DNA from: Mediterraneibacter catenae
GTDB lineage: Bacteria > Bacillota > Clostridia > Lachnospirales > Lachnospiraceae
Length of the DNA: 39,645 nucleotides
NCBI RefSeq assembly: GCF_008691045.1
Contig: NZ_VMSO01000025.1
Span: 1-39,645, forward strand
Reading direction: 5' to 3'
Both the position numbers and the translations under genes were made by a program. Shown one piece after another: positions 1 through 39,645 of the stretch. Under the pieces are notes generated by a model, which saw nothing but the letters and a program-made list of their open reading frames with translations, ran no database searches and was not told where the DNA came from. Numbering within the stretch: position 1 is the stretch's first letter; each line of letters starts with the position of its first letter.

Positions 1-207
1 ATCTTAGTCGAAAAAGATCCGGCTTTGTTCCTTCCGTTTGAAATTCGATTTTCGGGATGGGAAAGAAAGCAGCCGGGAGGTATGTATTGTGTACGCACCG
101 TCGGAGCGGCGTCGGCACTTAGAGCGCGTCTTCTGCGCTCTTATGTACCGTTACACCGCGACCGAGTGAAAACGTGTGCGCTAACAATACATACCTCCCG
201 GCGGACT
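1..207. repeat. Structured direct repeat, left copy (long imperfect hairpin plus coding-like flank)
   Basis: Positions 44-207 match 39482-39645 with four substitutions and no indels; positions 1-43 match 39440-39481 less well (about eight substitutions and one indel). Within it, GCCGGGAGGTATGTATTGT (72-90) is perfectly complementary to 184-202, giving a 19-bp terminal stem. Inside lie a secondary pairing (106-112 with 153-159) and an apical hairpin (121-127 with 135-141, 7-nt loop). It lies 3' of topB. The minus strand carries a 22-codon frame (187 to 119) that starts at TTG after GGGAGG. The flank 1-43 reads on the minus strand as a decayed copy of the protein-like sequence seen near 39440-39500. 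It could be a MITE, a structured RNA or a relic of a mobile gene; I do not recognise the family. Confidence 0.85.
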
Positions 208-239
208 CTTTCTCAGTCAGATAAATCCAGAATTTACCT

Positions 240-2468
240 TTATAAGCCCAGATTTTTAAATGCTTCAGCAAAGGCGTTATTGATTGGTTCTTTCGCTTCT
301 TTTGCCTGTTTTCGCATATAGGCTGCCACATCTCTTTTATTTGCACTTTTTCCTTCTTTTTTCTTGCGCTCCTGGAAGGAGGAGAGTTTTTCTTTGTGTC
401 CGCAGGAGCATACGAATCGCTGTGCCTCTCCTTTTCCGACCAGTTCCATCTTTTTATGGCAGACCGGGCAGCGTGCATTTGTGCGCCGGGAAATGGTCTC
501 TCTGTACCCGCACTCACGATCCTGACAGACGAGCATTTTTCCGTGTTTTCCGTTTACTTCCAGCATCAGTTTACCGCACTGGGGGCATTTGTGGCGGGTC
601 AGATTGTCATGGCGGAATGTGCCGTCAGCATTTTTGATATCGCTGATCAGAGTTTTTGTGTATTCTTCAATCTCATCTATGAACTTTCTATCGGATTCTT
701 TTCCCTGTGAGATGGCTTTCAGGCGCATTTCCCACTGTGCCGTGAGTTCCGGGCTCTTCAGATCGGCAGGCACGAGCGAGAGAAGCTGCTTTCCTTTGGA
801 TGTAATATGGATCTCATTTCCTTTCTTCTCCATGAGAAAACTGCCGAAGAGCTTTTCGATGATATCGGCACGGGTGGCGACTGTTCCTAATCCGCCGGTC
901 TCGCCGAGAGTGCGGACAAGCGTACGGTCTTTGTGGTGCATATATTTGGCCGGATTTTCCATAGCTGCGATGAGAGTTCCCTCTGTAAAATGTGCAGGAG
1001 GTTTTGTTTTGCCTTCTGTGACTGTCAGGGCAGTGACAGGCAGTTCGCTTCCCTTATGGATGCTCGAAAGTGCCTGGCTGGCAGATGCGGACAGAACCAT
1101 ATCCTGCCTCGGATCGCCAGTATGCTCATCCGACAGATCGTCTGAATCGGAATCCTGACAGTCCGTGCCGCAGACTTCTCGCCATCCTGCTTTTATGACC
1201 ACATTTCCCTTTGCGCGGAATGTCTCTTTTCCGATCATGCCGGTGACAGATGTCTCTTCATATTCACATGCCGGTGACAGCACGGCCAGAAAACGGCGGA
1301 CGACCATATCGTAGATCTTCCGCTCGTCGGCAGACATGTGCTCCAGCTGAACAAACTGTTCTGTCGGGATGATCGCGTGGTGGTCTGACACCTTTGTGTT
1401 ATCTACAAAGGACTTGTCAGGTCTGATCTCCTGCATGGAAAGTCTGGCGGCAGCTTTGCGGTAAGGGCCGACAGCACATGCTTTCAGGCGCTCTTTCAGT
1501 GTCCCTGTCATGTCTGTGGTGAGATAGCGGGAATCTGTACGTGGATAAGTGAGAACCTTATGGTTCTCGTAAAGCCGCTGCATGATATTCAGTGTCTCCT
1601 TGGCAGAATAGCCGTAACGCTGGTTGGCTTCTCTCTGCAGCGCAGTCAGATCATACAGGGCGGGAGAATAAGTTTTCTTTGTTTTCTTTTTAACCTCGGA
1701 AATGTGGATCTTATTTCCAGCATTTTTCCGGATTGTATCGATTTTTGCTTTGTCAAAAGTGCGTCCGGAATTGGTCTGCGCATCAGCCCAGGTAAAAGTA
1801 ATCCCTCCGGCTGCTGCTTTTAGTCCATAATATGATTTGGGAATAAAGTTTTTTATTTCTTCCTCTCTTGAAGCGATCATTGCCAGCGTAGGAGTCTGAA
1901 CTCTGCCGCAGGAGAGCTGTGCGTTATATTTGCAGGTGAGGGCACGAGTCGCATTGATACCTACTACCCAGTCAGCTTCTGCACGGGCCTCTGCTGCGCG
2001 ATACAGATTATCATAATCTTTTCCTGGCTTCAAATGGGCAAATCCTTCACGGATTGCTTTGTCTGTCACAGAGGAAATCCAGAGACGTTTGAGGGGCTTT
2101 TTATTTCCAGCTTTATCGAGGATCCAGCGGGCGACGAGCTCACCTTCACGGCCTGCATCCGTGGCGATAATGATATCCGAGATATCTTTTCGGAAAATCT
2201 GTTCTTTGACCGCGTGATACTGACGGGATGTCTGCCGGATCACGACCAGCTTCCAATGCTCAGGAAGCATGGGAAGAGTATCCATGCTCCAGGTTTTGTA
2301 CTGTTCCCCGTATTCTTCCGGGTCAGCCAGTGTGACCAGATGACCCAGAGCCCATGTGACAACATAATCGTTTCCTTCTATATAGGAATTACTCTTTTTG
2401 CTGCATCCGAGTACACGGGCGATATCCCGCGCGACGGAAGGTTTTTCTGCTATAACAAGATGTTTCAT
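240..2468 (-). CDS. topB: DNA topoisomerase III (type IA)
   Basis: A type IA topoisomerase that relaxes or decatenates DNA through a 5'-phosphotyrosine intermediate. The 742-residue protein begins with a Toprim domain (MKHLVIAEKPSVARDIARVL, then the acidic site in TDAGREGELVARWI near residue 105). The central archway and active-site region includes the YPRTDSRYL segment with the catalytic tyrosine, and HHAIIPTEQ follows. The C-terminus has zinc-ribbon-like cysteine pairs (CPQCGK, CQDREC, CPVCHKKM, CSCGH), typical of TopB proteins of Firmicutes and of ICE-borne relatives. The gene is intact; its terminal residues FKNLGL are followed at once by the structured repeat. Upstream it is separated by about 100 bp from the YitT gene on the same strand. 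Whether this is the housekeeping copy or one derived from a mobile element cannot be told from the window. Confidence 0.95.
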   Translation of the reverse strand: MKHLVIAEKPSVARDIARVLGCSKKSNSYIEGNDYVVTWALGHLVTLADPEEYGEQYKTWSMDTLPMLPEHWKLVVIRQTSRQYHAVKEQIFRKDISDIIIATDAGREGELVARWILDKAGNKKPLKRLWISSVTDKAIREGFAHLKPGKDYDNLYRAAEARAEADWVVGINATRALTCKYNAQLSCGRVQTPTLAMIASREEEIKNFIPKSYYGLKAAAGGITFTWADAQTNSGRTFDKAKIDTIRKNAGNKIHISEVKKKTKKTYSPALYDLTALQREANQRYGYSAKETLNIMQRLYENHKVLTYPRTDSRYLTTDMTGTLKERLKACAVGPYRKAAARLSMQEIRPDKSFVDNTKVSDHHAIIPTEQFVQLEHMSADERKIYDMVVRRFLAVLSPACEYEETSVTGMIGKETFRAKGNVVIKAGWREVCGTDCQDSDSDDLSDEHTGDPRQDMVLSASASQALSSIHKGSELPVTALTVTEGKTKPPAHFTEGTLIAAMENPAKYMHHKDRTLVRTLGETGGLGTVATRADIIEKLFGSFLMEKKGNEIHITSKGKQLLSLVPADLKSPELTAQWEMRLKAISQGKESDRKFIDEIEEYTKTLISDIKNADGTFRHDNLTRHKCPQCGKLMLEVNGKHGKMLVCQDRECGYRETISRRTNARCPVCHKKMELVGKGEAQRFVCSCGHKEKLSSFQERKKKEGKSANKRDVAAYMRKQAKEAKEPINNAFAEAFKNLGL

Positions 2469-10200: not shown

Positions 10201-10220
10201 AATGTGAAAAAAGTGTGAAC

Positions 10221-10255
10221 GGGGACGTAGTAAAACCCGATTTTACTACGTCCCC
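10221..10255. repeat. REP-like palindrome, copy 1 (before era)
   Basis: GGGGACGTAGTAAAA, 5-nt loop CCCGA, then the exact reverse complement: a perfect 15-bp hairpin. The same arms recur at 16685-16721 and 17607-17641. The 3' arm ends 17 bases before the era start codon, directly ahead of its ribosome site. Confidence 0.9.
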
Positions 10256-10272
10256 AATGAAGAGGAGAATGT

Positions 10273-16684: not shown

Positions 16685-16721
16685 CGGGGACGTAGTAAAA
16701 GTTGATTTCACTACGTCCCCG
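16685..16721. repeat. REP-like palindrome, copy 2 (upstream of the RAYT)
   Basis: CGGGGACGTAGTAAAA, 5-nt loop GTTGA, then a 16-nt 3' arm with one mismatch. It lies eight bases after the glyS stop codon. Confidence 0.9.
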
Positions 16722-16734
16722 ATTAAGAATCAAG

Positions 16735-16764
16735 GTGTCCCAAACTGAATTTTGCCCTGTCCCT
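16735..16764. repeat. Inner inverted repeat of the RAYT unit, left arm
   Basis: This 30-nt segment (GTGTCCCAAACTGAATTTTG and 10 more bases) is the reverse complement of 17563-17592 at 27 of 30 positions. It may be a recognition site of the transposase or a second class of palindrome half. Confidence 0.75.
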
Positions 16765-16788
16765 AATCATGGGAAAAGGGGTGAAACA

Positions 16789-17556
16789 ATGCCGCGTACT
16801 GCTCGTAGAAGAAGCGCTACCGACATATATCATGTGATAGCGAGAGGGATTAATAAAGAGCCTATTTTTAAGCAGAAAAGAGAGAAGAACAATTTCATAA
16901 GGCTTCTGACGAAGCATCTTAAAGATCATGATATCGAAATATATGCGTATGTTATTATGTCGACGCATTTTCATATTCTGATTCGTGTTGATCTGAAACT
17001 CTTATCAAGTTACTTAGCCATTGTCTTGGCAGAATTTGCAGAATACTACAACTATAAACATAGTCGGAACGGTCATGTATTTCAGGACAGGTTCAAAAGC
17101 GAATGTGTGGAAACAGAGCAGTATTTTTGGAACTGTATGAGGTATATCCATATGAATCCGGTCAATGCCAATCTTGTGAAGTATCCCTTAAATTATATTT
17201 ATTCAAGTCTTAAGGAATATGAAACTGAAAAAAGCCGGATAATACATCCGAAAGCGATAAAAATATATAAAGAAAAGTTTTCCGATTTTGAGGAATATCT
17301 TGATTTTCATAACAAGGGGCAAAAGCAGGTTTTTATAGATATACCTGAAGATGTAGAAATACAGCTTGTAAAAGCCGCTTTGACGATATTGAAGCAGGAA
17401 GCACATCTGCGTGGATTGGAAGGACCTTATGAGATTATTGAAGATATGAAAATGCGGGAACAGTATAAAGATCAGATTCAGAAGGAACTGAAACTCACGA
17501 AAGCAAAAACGGAACGATTGTATAGAAATGTAAAAAGTTGTATAATTAAAAAATGA
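16789..17556 (+). CDS. REP-associated tyrosine transposase (RAYT, IS200-like HUH family)
   Basis: A 255-residue Y1 HUH nuclease. The HUH histidines are H60 and H62 (MSTHFHILI) and the catalytic tyrosine is Y119 in the family motif RYIHMNPVNANL. The N-terminus MPRTARRRSATDIYHVIARG is typical of the transposase-IS200-like REP group; the C-terminal 70 residues are a lysine-rich helical extension. I chose the ATG at 16789, with AAAAGGGGTG before it; the frame is open 29 codons upstream but there covers the inverted repeat. The gene is richer in A and T than the adjacent glyS and aminopeptidase genes, suggesting acquisition. Such enzymes cut single-stranded REP hairpins and are thought to spread them; mobility of this copy itself is not shown. 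Confidence 0.9.
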   Translation: MPRTARRRSATDIYHVIARGINKEPIFKQKREKNNFIRLLTKHLKDHDIEIYAYVIMSTHFHILIRVDLKLLSSYLAIVLAEFAEYYNYKHSRNGHVFQDRFKSECVETEQYFWNCMRYIHMNPVNANLVKYPLNYIYSSLKEYETEKSRIIHPKAIKIYKEKFSDFEEYLDFHNKGQKQVFIDIPEDVEIQLVKAALTILKQEAHLRGLEGPYEIIEDMKMREQYKDQIQKELKLTKAKTERLYRNVKSCIIKK

Positions 17557-17592: not shown

Positions 17593-17606
17593 AGTAAAAC
17601 TAAATT

Positions 17607-17641
17607 GGGGACGTAGTAAAATGGGGTTTTACTACGTCCCC
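17607..17641. repeat. REP-like palindrome, copy 3 (before the aminopeptidase)
   Basis: GGGGACGTAGTAAAA, loop TGGGG, exact reverse complement. It ends 18 bases before the aminopeptidase ATG, the same spacing as copy 1 to era. Confidence 0.9.
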
Positions 17642-17659
17642 GAAAGGAAGGAAATCAAT

Positions 17660-37928: not shown

Positions 37929-39104
37929 ATGAGTGTGAGTATCGATGTGGCATGGAAGAGCCTGAATAAATATCAGGAAGAATTGTGCGGAGATAAAGTG
38001 GAAATCATTAAGACCGAGGATTCGGATATCGTGATCCTTGCCGACGGAATGGGCAGCGGCGTCAAAGCAAATATTCTGGCAACGCTGACTTCAAAGATAC
38101 TGGGAACCATGCTCTACGAAGGAGCAGAGATTGAATCCTGTGTGGAGACGATCGCAAAGACGCTTCCCATCTGTAAAGTGAGAAAAGTAGCTTATGCGAC
38201 ATTTTCCATTCTTCAGATATTCCACAATGGAAACGCTTATCTGGCAGAATTTGATAATCCGTCGTGTGTGTTTATCCGGGATGGGAAGATCGTGGATTAT
38301 CCTTGTGAGACTCGTGAAATTGAGGGAAAGAGGATCCGCGAATACTGGTTTGCGGTGAAGAAAAATGACTGTTTCGTCCTGATGAGCGACGGCGTTGTCT
38401 ACGCCGGAGCAGGTTCTATCCTGAATCTTCAGGGGTGGACATGGGAGGCGGTGGCGGAATATACACTGAAATGTACGAAGAAGTCGCTCTCTGCTTCAAG
38501 GCTGGCCGTTATGCTGAGCCAGGCATGCGATGAGCTGTACGAGGAGAGACCCGGGGACGACACGACAGTAGCGGTGGCCAGAGTTATAGAGAGGCGTGTG
38601 GTCAATATCTTTACAGGACCGCCGAAAGCAAAAGAAGATGATGAACGGCTGATGCATGATTTCATTCATTCCGAAGGGAAGAAGGTTATCGCAGGGGGAA
38701 CAAGCGCTAATATCGCTGCCAGGGTGCTGGGGCGTGAGATCACGACAAAAGTGGACAGCCGTAATCCAGACGTGCCGCCCATGGCTGTGATAGATGGTAT
38801 TGACCTTGTGACTGAGGGCGTGCTGACTCTGGGGAAGAGTCTTAAGCTTCTTAAAAAATATGTGAATGACGAATTTGACGCAGAATTCTTTGATGAACTG
38901 GATGCCGATAATGGAGCCTCGCGTCTGGCAAAACTCCTCATTGAAGAGTGCACGGAGCTGAATCTCTTTGTCGGGACAGCAATTAATGAAGCCCACAAAG
39001 ATTCAGAGCTGAATTTTGAGCTGAGCATGAGACAGAATCTGGTGGAACAGCTGATCAGGACGATGGAAAAGGCGGGGAAACATGTGAAAGTGAAGTATTA
39101 TTAA
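37929..39104 (+). CDS. SpoIIE/PP2C-type protein phosphatase with extra C-terminal domain
   Basis: A 391-residue protein. Residues 1-215 are a PP2C (SpoIIE-like) phosphatase with metal-binding acidic motifs ILADGMGSGVKAN, VLMSDGVVYAGAG and PGDDTTVAVARV; GMGSG is the usual SpoIIE loop. Residues of about 220-391 form an unassigned domain beginning after the linker PPKAKEDDERLMHDF, with a glycine-rich motif VIAGGTSANIAARVLGREI and a helical end. No membrane segment. AGAAAGGTGGGA precedes the ATG. The pairing with the PAS-hydrogenase-like gene suggests that redox or H2 signals control dephosphorylation of a partner (perhaps an anti-sigma antagonist, the usual SpoIIE-type substrate); this is inference. 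Confidence 0.88.
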   Translation: MSVSIDVAWKSLNKYQEELCGDKVEIIKTEDSDIVILADGMGSGVKANILATLTSKILGTMLYEGAEIESCVETIAKTLPICKVRKVAYATFSILQIFHNGNAYLAEFDNPSCVFIRDGKIVDYPCETREIEGKRIREYWFAVKKNDCFVLMSDGVVYAGAGSILNLQGWTWEAVAEYTLKCTKKSLSASRLAVMLSQACDELYEERPGDDTTVAVARVIERRVVNIFTGPPKAKEDDERLMHDFIHSEGKKVIAGGTSANIAARVLGREITTKVDSRNPDVPPMAVIDGIDLVTEGVLTLGKSLKLLKKYVNDEFDAEFFDELDADNGASRLAKLLIEECTELNLFVGTAINEAHKDSELNFELSMRQNLVEQLIRTMEKAGKHVKVKYY

Positions 39105-39439
39105 ATTCCGGATTTATCGAACAGAAGCCACTGCGGTAAATAGTAAAGATATGCTAACCGAACAGTGGACACAGAAAAAGAAGATACTGCAACGCTGTGC
39201 CGACCCGCTTTACCTCATCCCCTCGAATCCATGTAACGCGGTATTAAAACACTCGTTCATTGGAACTCGCATTTTAATATCGCTAACATGGAGAACGAGG
39301 TGTATTCGGAACGCTCCATGTCGATGCACAGCTTATGCAGTATCTTCTTTTTCTGCTGTCTCATCCGGCCAGTAGTATACTTATCTTCAGCCGCAGCACC
39401 ATCTTTCAACAAATCCTCATCCTGCTCGGTAGAAAAGGG
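39105..39439. other. Degenerate region with an inverted duplication
   Basis: No confident gene. A 20-nt segment CAGAAAAAGAAGATACTGCA (39172-39191) recurs exactly inverted at 39336-39355 with weaker similarity around it. Both arms read as protein-like QKKKIL, on the plus and minus strands respectively. A minus-strand frame from the adjacent repeat through to 39257 (FFDYDPFSTEQDEDLL, then GRMRQQKKKIL) looks like the remnant of a gene. I do not recognise the family; decayed mobile DNA is the best guess. Confidence 0.5.
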
Positions 39440-39645
39440 ATCGTAGTCGAAAAAGTGCGGGACATGTTCTTTCCGTTTGAATTCGATTTTCGGGATGGGA
39501 AAGAAAGCAGACGGGAGGTATGTATTGTGTACGCACCGTTGGAGCGGCGTCGGCACTTAGAGCGCGTCTTCTGCGCTCTTATGTACCGTTACGCCGCGAC
39601 CGAGTGAAAACGTGTGCGCTAGCAATACATACCTCCCGGCGGACT
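39440..39645. repeat. Structured direct repeat, right copy
   Basis: The second copy of the element at 1-207, in the same orientation; it reaches the window edge, so its right flank is not visible. The terminal stem is CGGGAGGTATGTATTG (39512-39527) with 39623-39638. The inner GCGGCGT/ACGCCGC pairing is perfect here, and the apical hairpin matches the left copy. The minus-strand 22-codon frame (39625 to 39557) encodes the same peptide as the left copy. Its left flank reads on the minus strand as PIPKIEFKRKEHVPHFFDYD, of which the left copy keeps a frameshifted and stop-containing version. Confidence 0.85.

What the first reader, a model, noticed from the sequence alone, without database searches (positions are those of the whole stretch)
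1..207. 164-nt structured repeat bounding the window, better conserved than its flanks
Positions 44-207 and 39482-39645 differ at 4 of 164 bases, while the adjoining 43 bases differ at about 8 plus an indel. The conserved part folds on itself: a 19-bp terminal stem (72-90 with 184-202), an internal stem (106-112 with 153-159) and an apical hairpin (121-127 with 135-141). The change at 155 versus 39593 keeps pairing as a G-U wobble if the minus strand is transcribed. Conservation sharply limited to a foldable unit suggests a mobile hairpin element (MITE, REPIN-like) or a structured RNA family not known to me.
Basis: partly seen in the sequence, partly recalled or inferred. Interest (0 to 1): 0.7.

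Follow-up and report, generated by a model that had tools for sequence, protein, structure and literature searches.

The report
Mobile hairpin repeat behind stop codons
The sequence at both ends of this window is one of 26 copies in its genome of a folded, non-coding element that keeps its shape while the letters of its stem change, and it likely moves between genes in one family of gut bacteria and would serve them as a signal that ends transcription.

Summary
The window is a whole contig; at least 19 of 126 contig ends fall in elements of this kind. The 164-nt unit is one module of larger non-coding elements (456-893 bp in 12 complete ones) with inverted ends, starting 0-1 nt after a stop codon in 16 of 19 cases. 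A covariance model finds 26 copies here, copies in 44 of 58 genomes of the genus (apparently Mediterraneibacter), in 10 of 14 listed same-family genomes of other genera, and none outside the family in two samples. 28 of 40 base pairs show changes on both sides; no Rfam family matches. Presence differs between species at four of four orthologous sites; at three a close relative carries other modules or the opposite orientation. At some orthologous sites both stem arms differ while flank and head stay nearly identical. Best reading: a new family of non-autonomous mobile hairpin element, likely seated in place of terminators in Mediterraneibacter. Movement and terminator function are inferred.

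The parts
1..239 (-). Left element, truncated by the contig start; read on the minus strand it lies right behind the stop codon (240-242) of a topoisomerase gene (240-2468, minus)
220..235 (-). Outer inverted-repeat motif (minus strand AAATTCTGGATTTATC); as drawn it begins 4 nt after the stop codon
44..207 (-).
72..90 (.). Outer stem, arm a (19 bp with 184-202); the part that changes fast but stays matched in other copies
184..202 (.). Outer stem, arm b
91..183 (-). Conserved head: small hairpin plus long bulged stem with apical hairpin 121-127/135-141
39105..39645 (+). Right element, truncated by the contig end; starts directly after the stop codon (39102-39104) of a SpoIIE-domain gene (37929-39104, plus)
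39105..39118 (+). Outer inverted-repeat motif ATTCCGGATTTATC
39165..39360 (.). Second foldback module ('D'); by eye also at the orthologous site and at the rnfB site in G004
39482..39645 (-). Hairpin module (copy 2), at the far end of the right element and facing away from the SpoIIE-domain gene

Best explanation
The 164-nt unit is the hairpin module of a multicopy, non-coding element that likely spreads as a non-autonomous mobile repeat and, in Mediterraneibacter, likely takes the place of the intrinsic terminator right behind a gene's stop codon. Shown: a conserved three-way-junction head sits on a long stem whose letters differ between copies but stay complementary; copies are numerous, homogeneous within some genomes, patchily present at orthologous sites and modular. 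Inferred: the folded form, as single-stranded DNA or RNA, is what an enzyme working in trans recognises, so stem sequence is free to change; insertion next to or over a terminator is tolerated because the new hairpin with its T-rich edges would end transcription or protect the 3' end on either strand; the matched arms would be renewed by copying one arm from the other.
For: 26 covariance-model matches in the genome, up to 47 in a relative. Homogeneity: in G000 the within-genome median identity is 0.96 against 0.70 to other genomes; the nearest neighbour is in the same genome for 52 of 95 copies, shuffles mean 8.2, maximum 19. Presence/absence at 4 of 4 orthologous sites: the hairpin lies within 550 nt behind the stop in 11 of 82 same-genus orthologues; 36 of the other 71 show a terminator-like hairpin within 200 nt by a simple rule. 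Close relatives carry other modules or the reverse orientation at rnfB, glyA and the SpoIIE-domain gene. Structure: 28 of 40 pairs with double changes, 95.5% of cells paired, 0 of 500 shuffles reach the covariation score, slid controls 26-42% paired. Placement: upstream gene on the same strand in 91 of 111 places with an ORF called, stop 20-35 nt away in 53 of those 91. T-rich edge after the stem in 44 of 118 copies against 15.7% of 4970 random places.
Against: No transposase linked: genomes without PF01797 have up to 28 copies, and other transposase families were not tested. No target-site duplication: the longest shared junction string is 4 nt in 12 complete elements. In other genera orientation to genes is unbiased (-,- 12; +,+ 11; -,+ 6; +,- 5 of 39) and the T-edge is near background (9 of 39), so a terminator role is not a family-wide property. 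Several genomes (DWUT, DWVT, DWXK, DWYB, CALWFV, G082, G119) have only 0 or 1 copies whose nearest neighbour is in the same genome, which looks like old inheritance. The terminator rule hits only 3 of the 11 sites that carry the hairpin, although it cannot score so large a hairpin. One of the five covariation measures, further pair types, is not above shuffles (85 of 500 reach it).
Confidence: 0.55

Rival explanations
1. A family of structured RNAs acting in cis in 3' untranslated regions (processing, stability, protein binding), inherited mainly vertically, with no mobility of its own.
For: Head conserved across genera of the family with strong covariation; 3'-end bias and sense orientation in Mediterraneibacter; copies shared at orthologous sites between genomes, seen as 87 flank-matched pairs, not independent.
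Against: Unbiased orientation in other genera including six divergent intergenic regions; homogeneous sets in G000, CAMMSL and DXIU; presence/absence at 4 of 4 sites and module swaps; G-U not favoured over A-C in the outer stem on the gene-sense strand.
Confidence: 0.25
2. Simply oversized bidirectional intrinsic terminators between convergent genes, whose arms are kept matched by replication template switching; the head is a passive loop.
For: Position of the hairpin, and terminator-like hairpins at about half of the sites without it; T-rich edges in 44 of 118 copies; arms change as matched pairs.
Against: The head keeps specific bases and internal bulges across genera, which a passive loop would not; in G007 two inverted hairpins flank a terminator-like hairpin, presumably the native one; 16 to 47 copies in several genomes.
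Confidence: 0.12
3. A REP/REPIN-type element moved by the IS200-like transposase, one of which lies in this very window (16702-17556).
For: Palindromic, extragenic, in several loci as inverted pairs about 300 nt apart; a PF01797 protein is encoded in the window.
Against: No GTAG/CTAC in window 1-240; that transposase is flanked by its own, different palindromes; G065, G072 and G074 have 28, 28 and 16 copies without any PF01797 match.
Confidence: 0.05

Closest known systems
EFAR repeats of Enterococcus (MITE-like; PMC3733652 names them among bacterial MITEs, passage seen; modular assembly and stem-loop targets are recalled, the original paper was not found in the held library)
   Same: Modular palindromic elements of variable length that, as recalled, settle at stem-loops behind genes and keep part of the target stem
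   Different: No sequence link could be tested; here a conserved three-way-junction head with freely changing matched arms is found across genera of one family
YPAL/RU-2, ERIC, RUP and NEMIS/Correia elements (MITE-like; review PMC2229807, passages seen)
   Same: Small non-coding foldback repeats (107-168 bp for those whose size I saw), mostly intergenic; YPAL targets lie at or next to dyad symmetry and filled and empty sites are known
   Different: Their copies are, as recalled, recognised by sequence; here stem sequence differs between copies, and no TA ends or target-site duplication were found
REP/REPIN with RAYT transposase (PMC3733652 and PMC8266576, passages seen)
   Same: Extragenic hairpins, predominantly downstream of genes, folded single strand recognised
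   Different: REP stems are 5-13 bp with a GTAG or CGTC tag; here 19 bp and more, no tag at the hairpin, no link to PF01797
Intrinsic (rho-independent) terminators
   Same: Hairpin with T-rich edge behind the stop codon, between convergent genes
   Different: A structured head of about 95 nt instead of a short loop, multicopy homologous family, arbitrary orientation in other genera

Membership tests
REP/REPIN | GTAG (or CGTC) tag beside a 5-13 bp stem | tested here: not met
   No GTAG or CTAC in window 1-240; in the right element GTAG at 39429 and 39443 only, outside the hairpin; stem 19 bp; CGTC was not scanned for; definition from PMC3733652 passages
REP/REPIN | Cognate RAYT (PF01797) in the genome | tested here: not met
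   G065, G072, G074 have 28, 28, 16 copies and no PF01797 match
MITE | Short non-coding element with terminal inverted repeats | tested here: met
   ATTCCGGATTTATC...GATAAATCCGGAAT-type ends in 12 complete elements of G000 out of 17 tried; 76 pattern hits with up to 3 mismatches against 0 for the reversed control
MITE | Target-site duplication | tested here: not met
   Longest string shared across junctions is 4 nt in 12 complete elements; exact junctions uncertain
MITE | Cognate transposase with the same terminal repeats | tested here: inconclusive
   Only PF01797 was counted across genomes; coding elements with these ends were not searched for systematically
EFAR-like terminator-targeting repeat | Empty sites carry a stem-loop/terminator at the insertion point | tested here: inconclusive
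   36 of 71 orthologues without the hairpin show a terminator-like hairpin within 200 nt; flanks too diverged to define exact junctions
Rfam RNA families | Match to a curated covariance model | tested here: not met
   0 at gathering score in the window; nothing on the hairpin at E up to 5 in 8 loci
Intrinsic terminator | Hairpin followed by a T-run | tested here: inconclusive
   T-rich edge in 44 of 118 copies vs 15.7% random; 9 of 39 in other genera
Intrinsic terminator | Transcription ends there | not testable with these tools
   No RNA data available

The most novel reading that the evidence does not exclude
A shape-encoded mobile element: an unknown enzyme recognises only the folded three-way-junction head, while the long stem is exchanged or rebuilt as a matched pair of arms, so the element travels and renews itself by fold rather than by sequence. 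At one ileS-leader site a 199-nt identical run ends about 40 nt before the hairpin model in two genomes and the head is 95% identical, while both arms differ at about half of their positions yet pair. I saw no such mode of mobile-repeat evolution in the searches named.
Probability: 0.25. Interest if true: 0.85.

Novelty: new variant of a known kind. Interest (0 to 1): 0.6.

Why it matters
Many gut and poultry bacteria of one family carry up to tens of copies of a folded element, not described in the searches made here, at the ends of their genes, and assemblies seem to break at it. If it moves by shape, it gives a testable system for how a mobile repeat can keep a fold while freely replacing its stem, and for how bacteria swap transcription-ending signals.

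Tried and rejected
Rejected: chance or assembly artefact (26 copies, with differing neighbouring genes); phage or plasmid origin (no match in viral contigs, plasmids or phages, each with one pattern or one copy); known Rfam family; RAYT as mover. Which strand is folded as RNA was left open. A first reading that every copy is a terminator was withdrawn after other genera showed no orientation bias and little T-edge.

Limits of the counts; the 87 flank-matched pairs reuse loci and fall on few sites (by my reading the two ileS hairpins, two sites of genus g26, one further site), so 36 of 87 is not a count of independent events; its flanks include coding sequence, which inflates their identity; the switch at L096/L279 could be a short recombination tract from a more distant strain. 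Alignment A2 keeps 72 of 113 distinct segments: L112, L180, L181, one with N and those 92% or more alike were dropped. L026 and L028 were left out because no long frame ends there; L016 counts among the 16 but its frame is only 82 codons and overlaps what looks like a divergent gene; 82 of 86 same-genus loci were used (L244, L355, L357, L381 are cut); L194, L203, L205, L207, L216, L342, L370 and L377 end 23-484 nt after the stop, so a hairpin further on would be missed; in a few (L210, L226, L369) the terminator-like hit belongs to another module; 39 of 40 fetched loci (L324 left out). The gene context comes from a simple ORF caller. The whole-genome copy number depends on how many candidates a call scores (26, 24 and 14).

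Papers: EFAR was found only as one mention. Searches for a prior description gave none; I saw passages only of PMC3733652, PMC8040213, PMC8266576 and PMC2229807. PMC8040213 reports 250 palindromic candidate RNAs, 230 of them predicted terminators; its tables could not be read, so an unnamed earlier listing is possible.

Full report
What is there. The window is the complete contig C18 of a 3.18-Mb genome in 63 contigs. Blast finds 38 matches to the 164 bases in that genome, 19 of them over at least 162 bases at 92-100% identity. Taking the outer-motif hits with the contig lengths, at least 19 of 126 contig ends fall inside such an element (not always in the hairpin module itself), so the assembly appears to break there; that is why the repeat bounds the window.

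Anatomy in this genome. Read on the strand of the neighbouring gene, the order is: stop codon, outer motif AATTCCGGATTTATC, the hairpin module, further foldback modules, and the outer motif inverted, in several cases followed directly by the stop codon of a convergent gene. The motif (counted from ATTC) lies 0-1 nt after the stop codon in 16 of 19 elements with an upstream frame, and 3-6 nt in the other three, the window's left copy among them. Twelve complete elements, of 17 tried, measure 456-893 bp. Inside them different modules follow the hairpin; the window's right element carries one I call D (39165-39360), with the hairpin at its far end.

The family. A covariance model (R1) built from a 72-sequence alignment (A2) finds 26 copies in this genome and copies in 44 of 58 genomes of the genus, up to 47. 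In a sample of 146 genomes of the order, 11 including the own have copies; all belong to the same family: 10 of the 14 listed same-family genomes of other genera, and none of the rest. In a class sample 7 of 245 have copies, again all in that family, partly the same genomes. No Rfam family matches the hairpin, and viral contigs, phages and plasmids gave nothing.

Structure. On A2, aligned without structure, 28 of 40 pairs show changes on both sides, 95.5% of cells pair, no shuffle of 500 reaches the covariation score 0.510 (shuffles 0.177), and structures slid by 1-3 columns pair in only 26-42% of cells; one of the five measures, further pair types, is not above shuffles. On 45 matches from other genera, aligned to the model and therefore biased towards it, 39 of 40 pairs show double changes. 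The head is a small hairpin plus a long bulged stem with near-invariant bases; the outer stem has little conserved sequence beyond its inner end.

Position. Of 124 distinct places, nearly all from the genus, the upstream gene was called in 111 and runs in the same direction as the hairpin in 91; its stop lies 20-35 nt away in 53 of these 91. In 39 places of other genera the neighbours are -,- in 12, +,+ in 11, -,+ in 6 and +,- in 5, the remaining 5 lacking one neighbour. So the 3'-end habit belongs to Mediterraneibacter, not to the family. A T-rich edge follows the stem in 44 of 118 Mediterraneibacter copies against 15.7% of random places, an A-rich edge precedes it in 40 of 118 against 18.2%; elsewhere 9 and 11 of 39.

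Empty and filled sites. I compared four genes across relatives: rnfB and glyA (my names, from the sequence) next to other copies, and the two genes next to the window's copies. The hairpin lies within 550 nt behind the stop in 11 of 82 same-genus orthologues (ten by the model, plus L342, cut by a contig end, by eye). Of the 71 others, 36 show a terminator-like hairpin with T-run within 200 nt by a simple rule; eight of the 82 are cut short by contig ends. At rnfB, G000 has the hairpin plus one module, G004 has two other modules between the same kind of ends, G002 has another module as far as its contig runs, and G007 has two inverted hairpins around a terminator-like hairpin that is presumably the native one. 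At the SpoIIE-domain gene the hairpin faces away from the gene in G000 and lies next to it in G002, while G004 starts with module D and has no hairpin by the model. At glyA, G002 has another module and G004 only a terminator-like hairpin. This turnover is what a mobile, modular repeat would leave.

Homogeneity and age. In G000 the 19 copies compared are 0.96 identical (median) within the genome and 0.70 to others; CAMMSL (0.95) and DXIU (0.83) also stand apart. In DWUT, DWVT, DWXK, DWYB, CALWFV, G082 and G119 the nearest relative of a copy is nearly always in another genome. The family thus looks old, with recent amplification in some lineages.

The odd thing: matched arms that switch. Among 87 pairs of copies with both flanks orthologous, 36 have mean arm identity below 0.72 (random arms 0.61 +/- 0.11), while flanks are 80-99.6% and heads 73-100% identical, and each copy's own arms form 13-22 pairs. 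Examples are L303/L305 and L302/L309 between two species of another genus and L096/L279 before ileS, where a 199-nt identical run ends about 40 nt before the model match and the head is 95% identical. The pairs are not independent, and a short recombination tract is possible for the ileS case. In L303/L305 the head is 98% identical while the outer arms differ, which fits arm replacement better than exchange of the whole unit. Copying of one arm from the other during replication, with the head held by selection, is the simplest inferred mechanism; why the head is held is unknown.

Strand. On the gene-sense strand the outer stem shows 58 A-C against 13 G-U cells in A2 and 34 against 14 in A3; the head shows 20 against 53 and 9 against 22, but in A2 13 G-U remain if one pair that is mostly U-G is set aside.

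Comparison. It works like the MITE-like foldback repeats of bacteria (EFAR, YPAL, ERIC, RUP, NEMIS; PMC3733652 and PMC2229807, passages). It is not a REP/REPIN by the tests made. It differs in that shape, not sequence, is shared along the stem. I class it as a new variant of a known kind. The weakest links are the mover, which was not found, and function, for which there are no expression data here.

Noticed in passing
window 16702-17556, 16685-16728, 17606-17649, 10220-10263: A 284-aa IS200-like (RAYT-like) protein flanked by palindromes GGGGACGTAGTAAAA..TTTTACTACGTCCCC, with a third palindrome at 10220: it looks like a REP-type system of its own, distinct in sequence from the 164-nt family.
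   Followed up: partly
L004, L009, L013, L007, L195 and window 39165-39360: At least four other foldback modules occur in the same elements; one has a recurring loop like TGTCTGAG..CGAGTT on varying stems and appears behind glyA in other species (L232, L238). They look like separate structured families.
   Followed up: partly
L046, L096, L154, L174, L279 (ileS leader): An inverted pair of the hairpin sits before ileS (named from sequence) in several genomes, behind a terminator; in L046 a T-box match below Rfam's cut-off lies there.
   Followed up: partly
L004 2152-2314: Glycine riboswitch match downstream of one element.
   Followed up: no
L210 (G015, rnfB site): A composite of another type, with different inverted ends (AAATACATCTTT..) around a GC-rich hairpin, occupies the same site.
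   Followed up: no
G000 assembly: At least 19 of 126 contig ends lie in elements with the outer motif, so assemblies of the genus probably break at them.
   Followed up: no
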